DNA from: Solirubrobacteraceae bacterium
GTDB taxonomy: Bacteria; Actinomycetota; Thermoleophilia; Solirubrobacterales; Solirubrobacteraceae
DNA: 64,000 bases
NCBI GenBank assembly: GCA_030447505.1
Contig: JAUJOT010000005.1
Span: forward strand, 238,393-302,392
Reading direction: 5' to 3'
The position numbers and the translations under genes were made by a program. This document shows positions 1 through 1,688 of the stretch, in pieces (the stretch's first letter is position 1; every line of letters begins with the position of its first letter). Below the pieces are notes generated by a model. The model was given only the letters and a program-made list of their open reading frames with translations, was not told the origin of the DNA and ran no database searches.

Positions 1-189
1 ACGGTGGCGCTGCGGTCGCGGCTCGCCGGGCCCGTAGAAGTCGGCATGCAGCCGCTGCGCGAGCGCCGCGACGAGCGACGCGCCCGGCGCCAGCGCGACG
101 CGCCGGCCGAACCACAGGTACGCGGCGGGCGGGCGTATGGCGACGGCGCCGAGCGCAGCGAGCAGCTGCGTCTCGTAGCGGTCGCTCAC
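1..189 (-). CDS. HopA1-like protein, N-terminus only
   Basis: A GTG at 187-189 overlaps the TGA of the kinase gene (GTGA), so the two are translationally coupled; 63 codons are visible before the window ends. The reading starts VSDRYETQLLAALG and contains LHADFYGPGEPRP, which resembles the Arg-Leu-(x)n-Phe-Tyr-x-x-Gly segment of HopA1-family proteins. In thioamitide and class V lanthipeptide clusters a HopA1 protein acts with an APH-type kinase to dehydrate Ser/Thr in a precursor peptide. The family call rests on this short segment and on the kinase partner, so it is tentative. Confidence 0.5.
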   Translation of the reverse strand, partial: MSDRYETQLLAALGAVAIRPPAAYLWFGRRVALAPGASLVAALAQRLHADFYGPGEPRPQRHR

Positions 190-1199
190 GCCGCGATCCC
201 CAGCAGCTCGTCCGCCGCCGCGCGCGGCGCCAGCAGGATGTCGCGAGCGAGCGCGAGGCCGCGCGCGACGCGCTCGCTCAGCAGTCCCGTCTCCTGCGTC
301 TTCTCGTAGGCGCTCTGCACGAGCCGCGCAGCGCTGTAGGGAACCGCTCGCACGAGCAGCTCGCGCGCACCTTCCGAGTCGATCCGCCGCGCGCTCGCGT
401 ACGCGCGCCAGAACGCCGCGATGGCCGGCTCGCGCGCCGCGCGCCGGTCGCCGCTGGAGCGCAGCCGCCAGCCGAGGAACTCGCCGAACGCCGAGCCGAC
501 GTCGAGCGCCGGATCGCCCCAGCCGGCCATCTCCCAGTCGACGAGCTTGATCGCGCCCGGGCGCGCGACGATGCAGTTGGCCCATTTCACGTCGCGATGC
601 ACGAGCGCCTCCACGCGCCAGTCCTCGCGCAGGTCGTCGAGGCCGCGCGCGAAGGGCGCGTCGCGCTGGATCGCCTTGATCAGCTCGATGCTCGCAGCGC
701 TGAGATAGCGCAGCGCGTCCAGGCGCGGACGATGCAGCGACAGCACCCACGGCGCGTCGCGTCGCAGCTCCTCGCCGTCGGGCGCCACGCGATGCACCGC
801 GGCGAGCACGCGACCCAGCGCCGCCGCCAGCGCGACCGAGCAGCGCGCGCGGTGCGCGTGGTGGCGATAGAGATCCTCGCCGTCGGCGATCCACTCCAGC
901 ACGAGGACGCCGCGCGCCGCATCGAATCCGTACAGGCGCGGGATCGCCGCGGCGAGCGGACCGCCCGCCGCGGCGAGCCGGCGGTACAGCGCGACCTCGT
1001 TGGCGAGCGATTCGGCGCTGTCGGCGACGATCCCCTGCTTGAGCAGGTAGCTCTCGCCGCGCCCGCCGCTGACGCGGAAGTTGCGGTTGCGGCTCGAGAC
1101 GTCGGCGATCCGCAGTGCGCCGGCGACGACCGATCGGCGTGCGACGAGCCCGCGAGCGAGCAGGTATGCGGCGACTTCGCGCTGTTCGAGCATCGGCAT
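186..1199 (-). CDS. APH-family phosphotransferase (possible RiPP kinase)
   Basis: A 337-residue aminoglycoside-phosphotransferase/choline-kinase fold protein. The ATP-binding Lys is probably K54 (YLLKQG). The Brenner catalytic loop is HRDVKWAN (H201-N208) and the metal-binding Asp is D221 in KLVDWE, so the kinase looks intact. It has no signal peptide and is cytoplasmic. The next gene downstream starts inside its stop codon and resembles HopA1. APH plus HopA1 is the pair that phosphorylates and eliminates Ser/Thr in thioviridamide-type and class V lanthipeptide pathways, so peptide modification is the attractive reading. An ordinary small-molecule kinase (homoserine, choline or antibiotic type) remains possible. 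Confidence 0.85.
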   Translation of the reverse strand: MPMLEQREVAAYLLARGLVARRSVVAGALRIADVSSRNRNFRVSGGRGESYLLKQGIVADSAESLANEVALYRRLAAAGGPLAAAIPRLYGFDAARGVLVLEWIADGEDLYRHHAHRARCSVALAAALGRVLAAVHRVAPDGEELRRDAPWVLSLHRPRLDALRYLSAASIELIKAIQRDAPFARGLDDLREDWRVEALVHRDVKWANCIVARPGAIKLVDWEMAGWGDPALDVGSAFGEFLGWRLRSSGDRRAAREPAIAAFWRAYASARRIDSEGARELLVRAVPYSAARLVQSAYEKTQETGLLSERVARGLALARDILLAPRAAADELLGIAA

Positions 1200-1220
1200 C
1201 CGGGGGCGGGAGCCCGGGGG

Positions 1221-1394
1221 TCACGCCGGCAGCGAGTGTAGATGCAGCCGCACCGCTGACACGCTCGGCGGGACGTTCGTCGTCGGCTTCGAGGCCGCTG
1301 CCGCGGTCTGCTGCGGCGGCCTCAAGCGCCTGCCTGACGGGGCGTGTGAGATCAAGAAGATGTTCGTCGTCGCACATGCTCGCGGTCGCGGCAT
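1221..1394 (-). CDS. Small 57-codon ORF upstream of the kinase (candidate precursor)
   Basis: An ATG at 1392-1394 follows a GGAGGG at good spacing on the minus strand. The frame runs 57 codons and stops 21 bp before the kinase start. The product starts MPRPRACATTNIFLIS; its C-terminal half is rich in Thr, Ser, Ala and Pro (KPTTNVPPSVSAV). Its position would suit a precursor peptide for the kinase/HopA1 pair, but the only Cys is residue 7 and the C-terminus lacks one, whereas known class V lanthipeptides and thioamitides use a C-terminal Cys. Other frames here are also open. Low confidence that it is expressed. Confidence 0.25.
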   Translation of the reverse strand: MPRPRACATTNIFLISHAPSGRRLRPPQQTAAAASKPTTNVPPSVSAVRLHLHSLPA

Positions 1395-1688
1395 CGCGCG
1401 CAAACCCTCCGGCGCCCGGGCGCGTCGCAGGTTCTCAAGACCTTCACATCCGCTGCAGCTGCGTGCGCGAGCATGCCGGCGCGCCTGCACTCTCCCCGCA
1501 GCGCGCGGTTCAAGCGCAGCGACGGCGCATGGCCCGTCGGCTTCGGCGGAAGCACGGATCGTCGGGGTCGACGGGCTCGCGCCGTCGTTCTTCGCCGTCA
1601 CGGAGGTCAGCCGCGATCGGCGTCGCGCCGCGCGCTCGCCGTCGACGACGTGGCAGCGGATCGCGGCGATCGTCGCTACGGTGCGACG
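1395..1688. other. Divergent intergenic region
   Basis: About 290 bp between the minus-strand kinase group and the plus-strand beta-propeller gene. It must hold the divergent promoters. All frames are GC-rich and partly open, but none combines a ribosome-binding site with a recognisable product. No terminator or operator symmetry was seen. Confidence 0.4.

What the first reader, a model, noticed from the sequence alone, without database searches (positions are those of the whole stretch)
1..1394. Kinase plus HopA1-like gene pair: possible RiPP dehydration module at the window edge
An intact APH-type kinase overlaps (GTGA) a gene whose first 63 codons resemble HopA1. In thioviridamide-like and class V lanthipeptide (lexapeptide, cacaoidin) pathways, an APH kinase and a HopA1 protein together dehydrate Ser/Thr. 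A 57-codon ORF with a GGAGGG site and a Thr/Ser-rich end lies directly upstream, though it lacks a C-terminal Cys. If real, this would be a RiPP system in an unusual lineage. The neighbours inside the window show no other RiPP gene.
Basis: partly seen in the sequence, partly recalled or inferred. Interest (0 to 1): 0.7.

Follow-up and report, generated by a model that had tools for sequence, protein, structure and literature searches.

The report
Disarmed lanthipeptide-making operon
A soil actinobacterium carries a three-enzyme set for making ring-shaped peptide natural products in which the kinase looks intact but the other two enzymes have lost their key catalytic residues, so it probably now only phosphorylates something or is slowly dying out.

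Summary
Kinase 186-1199(-) overlaps (GTGA) a HopA1 gene cut by the window edge. Left of the edge the operon continues: HopA1, a LanC-like cyclase, then an EttA-like ABC-F gene 3 bp further. This is a split kinase-HopA1-LanC ("KYC") lanthipeptide synthetase, an architecture reported from genome mining in 2021. It is not a thioamitide or AviCys cluster.

The 57-codon "precursor" is spurious: it lies antisense to a relic GNAT gene and is not conserved in the sister operon.

In this operon and its only ortholog (same genus, G001), the essential HopA1 lysine is glutamate and the LanC zinc cysteines are gone. Nearly all relatives keep them, including a complete paralogous module with a Cys-rich precursor on another contig. 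The kinase is intact. Shared derived residues date the losses before the two species split, yet all ORFs stay open under purifying selection (omega about 0.5-0.6). A third congener shows a deletion scar. No family-type precursor was found beside the operon or in G001.

Best reading: a disarmed KYC synthetase kept as a phosphorylation-only complex (inferred, about 0.5). Rivals: a slowly decaying relic or, less likely, a working synthetase with an unlinked precursor.

The parts
186..1199 (-). APH-fold kinase (LanK/LxmK-like), 337 aa; conserved kinase residues K54, E68, H201/D203, N208, D221 all present
   Evidence: Pfam APH 4.2e-23; best NCBIfam hit LxmK 103 bits. 28 of 29 conserved columns kept in both the window copy and G001.
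1..189 (-). First 63 codons of the HopA1 (LanY-like) gene, 315 aa, catalytic Lys replaced by Glu190. The operon continues left of the window (window position 1 = L011:17994): rest of HopA1 (L011:17235-18182), LanC-like cyclase of 419 aa (L011:15995-17254; zinc ligands replaced by S283 and G334, H335 kept), EttA-like ABC-F (L011:14180-15991, 3 bp after the LanC stop, a core gene of the order)
   Evidence: PF17914 3.3e-27, PF05147 9.9e-48; LanC start; residue mapping; ABC-F
1221..1394 (-). The 57-codon ORF proposed as precursor: spurious
   Evidence: Antisense to the GNAT relic; codon score -4.6; almost all of it outside the block conserved with G001
1267..1401 (+). Relic of a GNAT acetyltransferase gene, intact in congener G003 (L065:9350-9811, -)
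   Evidence: tblastn 82% over 45 aa, E 1e-21; blastn 142 bp 83.8%, E 1e-38

Best explanation
The genes at the edge are the front of a four-gene operon: kinase (LanK-like), HopA1 (LanY-like), LanC, ABC-F. The first three descend from a split kinase-lyase-cyclase (KYC) lanthipeptide synthetase, in which the kinase phosphorylates Ser/Thr of a precursor, HopA1 eliminates the phosphate and LanC adds Cys to the alkene. Here the lyase and cyclase active sites were lost before the split of the two species that carry the operon, while the kinase site was kept. Shown by sequence: homology, operon order, residue losses, open ORFs, constraint after the loss, no precursor found beside the operon, deletion in a congener. 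Inferred: HopA1 and LanC now act as non-catalytic scaffold or substrate-binding partners, so the complex would phosphorylate (not dehydrate) an unknown, probably non-RiPP substrate.
For: HopA1 lysine equivalent to CaoY K219 (K219A loses lyase activity, PMC9486802) is Glu in the window operon and G001, and Lys in 23 of 24 other HopA1 proteins that cover the site and in PDB 9dk1_B. The Tyr236 equivalent is lost in both; R229 is lost in the window copy and R187 in G001. LanC zinc ligands are S/G/H and R/G/D, but C/C/H in all seven intact KYC relatives compared; the likely NisC D141 equivalent is also lost in the window copy. Identical derived states in both species (HopA1 K190E, P244R, S257R; LanC Y64G, C334G) place the loss before the split. 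Constraint since then: omega 0.54/0.58/0.50 for kinase/HopA1/LanC, bootstrap upper bounds 0.73/0.74/0.63; neutral simulation leaves 0.05-0.35% of ORF pairs free of stops, indels ignored. Kinase keeps 28 of 29 conserved columns. G001 holds no other HopA1 or LanC and no leader-type precursor.
Against: The module is dispensable: 5 of 7 sampled genomes of the genus lack HopA1 and G003 carries a deletion scar. Omega is higher than for ABC-F (0.36) and DUF2294 (0.28), so constraint is relaxed. No substrate is known. Kinase activity is only predicted. Only two orthologs are available, and the NG86 omega estimate is crude in 70-75% GC genomes.
Confidence: 0.5

Rival explanations
1. A decaying relic: an ancestral KYC lanthipeptide cluster lost its precursor, the lyase and cyclase sites drifted, and the genes are on the way to deletion.
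For: Deletion with LanC and GNAT remnants in G003 (67 bp 82.9% E 4e-14 and 142 bp 83.8% E 1e-38). KYC-free syntenic locus in G002. No precursor. Omega above that of the neighbouring genes. Further, different active-site losses in each species (R229 and D152 in the window copy, R187 and H335 in G001).
Against: All three ORFs are open in both species at dS about 0.55, with omega upper bounds under 0.75, and the kinase site is untouched.
Confidence: 0.32
2. A still working lanthipeptide or dehydropeptide synthetase with altered chemistry and a precursor encoded elsewhere. The LanC would be metal-independent, as class III LanKC is (ThurKC has Ser/Phe/Asp at the zinc sites).
For: Class III precedent for cyclase domains without zinc ligands (PMC10604976); S283 in the window copy and D335 in G001 echo the ThurKC pattern. 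Constraint on the ORFs.
Against: The lyase lysine is Glu in both species; K219A in CaoY leaves only phosphorylated product. No leader-type precursor anywhere in G001 and only the C9 one in G000, though a precursor with an unrelated leader would be missed.
Confidence: 0.13
3. One reading: a functional class V/thioamitide-type module with the 57-codon ORF as precursor.
For: Homology of the kinase-HopA1 pair.
Against: The ORF is antisense to a GNAT relic, has negative codon score, lies almost wholly outside the conserved block and has no C-terminal Cys; no decarboxylase, YcaO or TfuA seen in the 18 kb left of the edge.
Confidence: 0.02

Closest known systems
HopA1-LanC RiPP-like clusters (families 11/20 and 22 of PMC8153245, genome mining 2021)
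   Same: Adjacent phosphotransferase, HopA1 and LanC genes, the set predicted there to make lanthionine. The C9 module of the same genome and the G292/G324/G340 modules fit well.
   Different: The window module lacks a precursor, the lyase lysine and the zinc ligands. I could not compare its relatives' precursors or leaders with those families because the supplements were not readable.
Class V lanthipeptide synthetase LanK/LanY (LxmK/LxmY, CaoK/CaoY)
   Same: APH kinase and HopA1 lyase as separate genes; here they overlap.
   Different: Cyclase is LanC-type rather than the APH-like LanX; no AviCys decarboxylase; catalytic K219 lost.
Thioamitide TsaC/TsaD (TvaC/TvaD) dehydratase
   Same: Kinase-HopA1 pair.
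   Different: No YcaO/TfuA, TsaF-like flavoprotein or Cys-ending precursor.
Class III LanKC (ThurKC)
   Same: LanC fold without the three canonical zinc ligands.
   Different: ThurKC is one chain with a Ser/Thr-kinase-type domain and an active lyase domain; here there are separate genes, an APH-type kinase and a lyase without its lysine.

Membership tests
KYC (HopA1-LanC) lanthipeptide synthetase | Adjacent APH kinase, HopA1 and LanC genes | tested here: met
KYC (HopA1-LanC) lanthipeptide synthetase | Catalytic Lys/Arg/Tyr of the HopA1 lyase | tested here: not met
   K to E in both orthologs, Tyr lost in both, one Arg lost in each
KYC (HopA1-LanC) lanthipeptide synthetase | LanC zinc ligands Cys, Cys, His | tested here: not met
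   S/G/H and R/G/D; intact in 7 of 7 intact KYC relatives compared
KYC (HopA1-LanC) lanthipeptide synthetase | Linked precursor with Ser/Thr/Cys core | tested here: not met
   No further ORF found in the conserved block; leader model finds only the C9 precursor in G000 and none in G001
KYC (HopA1-LanC) lanthipeptide synthetase | Kinase catalytic residues | tested here: met
   28 of 29 conserved columns kept in both species
Class V lanthipeptide (lexapeptide/cacaoidin) | APH-like LanX cyclase and Cys decarboxylase for AviMeCys | tested here: not met
   Gene content of the 18 kb left of the edge, genes called by codon score
Class V lanthipeptide (lexapeptide/cacaoidin) | LxmK equivalog score (NF038156 cut-off 315 bits) | tested here: not met
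   103 bits
Thioamitide | YcaO/TfuA and C-terminal Cys precursor | tested here: not met
   None seen in the 18 kb left of the edge
Any lanthipeptide system | Product containing (Me)Lan or dehydroamino acids | not testable with these tools
   Needs mass spectrometry

The most novel reading that the evidence does not exclude
A lanthipeptide synthetase converted into a phosphorylation-only protein kinase complex: an active APH-type kinase held by a pseudo-lyase and a pseudo-cyclase, translated together with an EttA-like ribosome-associated ABC-F factor and acting on a cellular protein. An independent HopA1-LanC pair without an adjacent kinase and without lyase lysine or zinc ligands (G277) suggests that such conversions recur.
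Probability: 0.3. Interest if true: 0.72.

Novelty: new variant of a known kind. Interest (0 to 1): 0.5.

Why it matters
[quoted passage not shown] This case shows that the handle also picks up modules whose elimination and cyclization sites are gone, so residue checks (HopA1 K/R/R/Y, LanC CCH) are needed before claiming a RiPP. If the constraint is real, it is a natural experiment in turning a peptide-tailoring machine into a plain kinase complex. The same genome holds a complete KYC cluster with a Cys-rich, repeat-bearing precursor, a better target for discovery in the little-studied Solirubrobacteraceae.

Tried and rejected
57-codon precursor: rejected. Precursor next to the operon: none in the block conserved with G001. 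C9-type precursor serving both modules: possible in G000, but G001 has no such precursor. A leader-like 133-aa protein in G003 has no Cys-rich core and no HopA1 in its genome, so it is not taken as a precursor. ABC-F as a dedicated self-resistance gene: rejected as specific, since relatives without the module carry it at about 70-87% identity. PADLOC found no specific defence match. A wide tblastn for K/Y/C remnants at E 1 gave composition noise in GC-rich DNA and was replaced by blastn of the aligned flank. The one genome-contig scan gave 4 loci only.

Full report
OBSERVATION. The window is contig C12:238393-302392 of a 3.84-Mb genome in 13 contigs. The closest named relative of this operon is a Solirubrobacteraceae MAG; it matches G001 in contig length and place. 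The kinase (186-1199, -) and the start of HopA1 (1-189, -) are as described, overlapping by GTGA. Reading left of the edge gives a full HopA1 protein (PF17914, 95.9 bits), then a LanC-like protein (PF05147, 163 bits) and an ABC-F ATPase. LanC most likely starts 93 bp upstream of my first call, as its G001 ortholog does; it then overlaps the end of HopA1 and is 419 aa. Its stop is 3 bp from the ABC-F start.

THE PROPOSED PRECURSOR. The 57-codon ORF has a negative codon score, is one of 246 ATG-ORFs of at least that length in the window, and lies antisense to a 45-codon relic of a GNAT gene that is intact in congener G003 (E 1e-21). blastn between the window genome and congener G001 finds one long conserved block, L011:14169-19243. 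It covers kinase, HopA1, LanC, ABC-F and 51 bp upstream, and leaves out nearly all of the ORF.

A SECOND, COMPLETE MODULE. Contig C9 of the same genome carries kinase, HopA1, LanC in the same overlapping order, behind a 245-aa Cys-rich ORF with two exact copies of CLSQQVRCQSAVDACPSRFG. Its N-terminal domain resembles ORFs upstream of KYC genes, or of a kinase plus HopA1-LanC fusion, in a Latescibacterota MAG, an Isosphaeraceae MAG and the class relatives G292, G324 and G340. None of the four scanned (C9, L031, L032, G292) has a Pfam hit. So KYC clusters with leader-type precursors exist in this class, and C9 is one of them.

ACTIVE SITES. In CaoY, K219A abolishes the lyase, R187A nearly does and R229Q weakens it (PMC9486802). 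I mapped these by spacing (K, +10 R, +17 Y; R at -31/-32), which holds in the intact HopA1 proteins and in PDB 9dk1_B. I did not have the CaoY sequence itself. Of 24 other HopA1 proteins that cover the site, 23 have Lys; the exception is G277. The window copy has E/D/L at K/R/Y and keeps R187; G001 has E/R/V and Gly at R187. LanC zinc ligands are Cys, Cys, His in all seven intact relatives compared, but S/G/H in the window copy and R/G/D in G001. By order and spacing (from memory of NisC, not a structural test), the Asp of NisC D141 is Gly in the window copy and kept in G001, and the His of H212 is kept in both. Among 47 positions invariant in intact LanC, 4 of these 5 active-site positions are lost in at least one of the two species against 4 of 42 others (hypergeometric p about 0.002, my arithmetic). 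The kinase keeps 28 of 29 conserved columns.

TIMING AND SELECTION. The two operons form a supported clade in the HopA1 and kinase trees (100/99) and a less firmly supported one in the LanC tree (94/95). They share identical derived residues (HopA1 K190E, P244R, S257R; LanC Y64G, C334G), so the losses predate their split, barring parallel change. Since then omega is 0.54, 0.58 and 0.50 for kinase, HopA1 and LanC, with bootstrap upper bounds of 0.73, 0.74 and 0.63. Neutral simulation at the observed dS leaves 0.05-0.35% of ORF pairs free of stops. ABC-F (0.36) and DUF2294 (0.28) are more constrained. The genes were therefore not drifting freely, but constraint is relaxed.

PRESENCE AND ABSENCE. 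HopA1 occurs in 8 of 232 genomes of the order and in 2 of the 7 sampled genomes of the genus, counting this one. G003 has lost the module: the GNAT match and a 67-bp LanC C-terminal remnant lie in order directly before its ABC-F gene. G002 has a syntenic locus without it. The ABC-F gene is present at about 70-87% identity in relatives without the module, so it is a host gene beside which the module sits, not a module component. It matches no ABC-F subfamily above cut-off; EttA is best.

MECHANISM. By homology, an ancestral KYC machine phosphorylated, eliminated and cyclized. As it stands, only the first step is predicted to work. The constraint on HopA1 and LanC scaffolds argues that they still bind something, perhaps the kinase, since CaoK and CaoY form a complex (PMC9486802). 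A phosphorylation-only complex is my preferred inference; a relic is the main rival. Lack of zinc ligands alone would not prove a dead cyclase, because class III ThurKC works without them (PMC10604976); the loss of the lyase lysine is the stronger argument.

LIMITS. Genomes are drafts or MAGs and a precursor with an unrelated leader could be missed. Only two orthologs exist in the sample. The genes on loci were called by my own codon-score script, not by a standard gene finder. The three-gene architecture is not new: PMC8153245 reported that 20% of HopA1 proteins are near or fused to LanC. In five literature searches I saw no report of a KYC module with erased lyase and cyclase sites, but most subscription papers and all preprints are not held.

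Noticed in passing
L012:10221-14385 (contig C9 of the same genome): Complete kinase-HopA1-LanC cluster with a Cys-rich 245-aa precursor-like ORF bearing two exact 20-aa repeats; a tyrosinase gene follows (L012:14559-15305).
   Followed up: partly
L012:15742-19997 and L024:3-3208: Next to it, a gene set with a QhpD-like radical SAM protein, a halogenase/FAD-type flavoprotein, a weak LodA_C match (E 0.0013) and a ferritin-like protein: possibly a split CTQ-type (LodA-like) system.
   Followed up: partly
L031:1874-2308, L032:3480-4145, L080:6450-6947, L081:10436-10843(-), L083:6795-7235, L012:10221-10520: Shared leader-like domain (GYLG...RLYL..D...Y.E motif) upstream of KYC-type genes across three phyla. 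The Isosphaeraceae precursor has tandem core repeats ending YYPGCVPPP; G324 and G340 share the core end SHTIGWCA.
   Followed up: partly
L084:8569-10514 (G277): HopA1-LanC pair with no adjacent kinase, lyase Lys to Arg and LanC zinc motifs changed (WASG, LGRG): a likely independent disarmed pair.
   Followed up: partly
L098:9350-9754(-) (G003): A 133-aa protein with the leader-like domain but no Cys-rich core, between a 1606-aa regulator and a gene with an HEIAHSFNLLHC zinc-protease-like motif, in a genome without HopA1.
   Followed up: partly
L080:1770-6428, L081:10858-15672(-), L083:2009-6817: Giant (1550-1600 aa) kinase-type regulators directly beside three KYC clusters.
   Followed up: no
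L020:10309-10527; L021:10403-10615(-); L023:7534-7740: Short ORFs ending in Cys (..TVKTGC, ..TVRVRC, ..TVRLRC) beside kinase-HopA1 genes in the same order: likely AviCys-type RiPP clusters.
   Followed up: no
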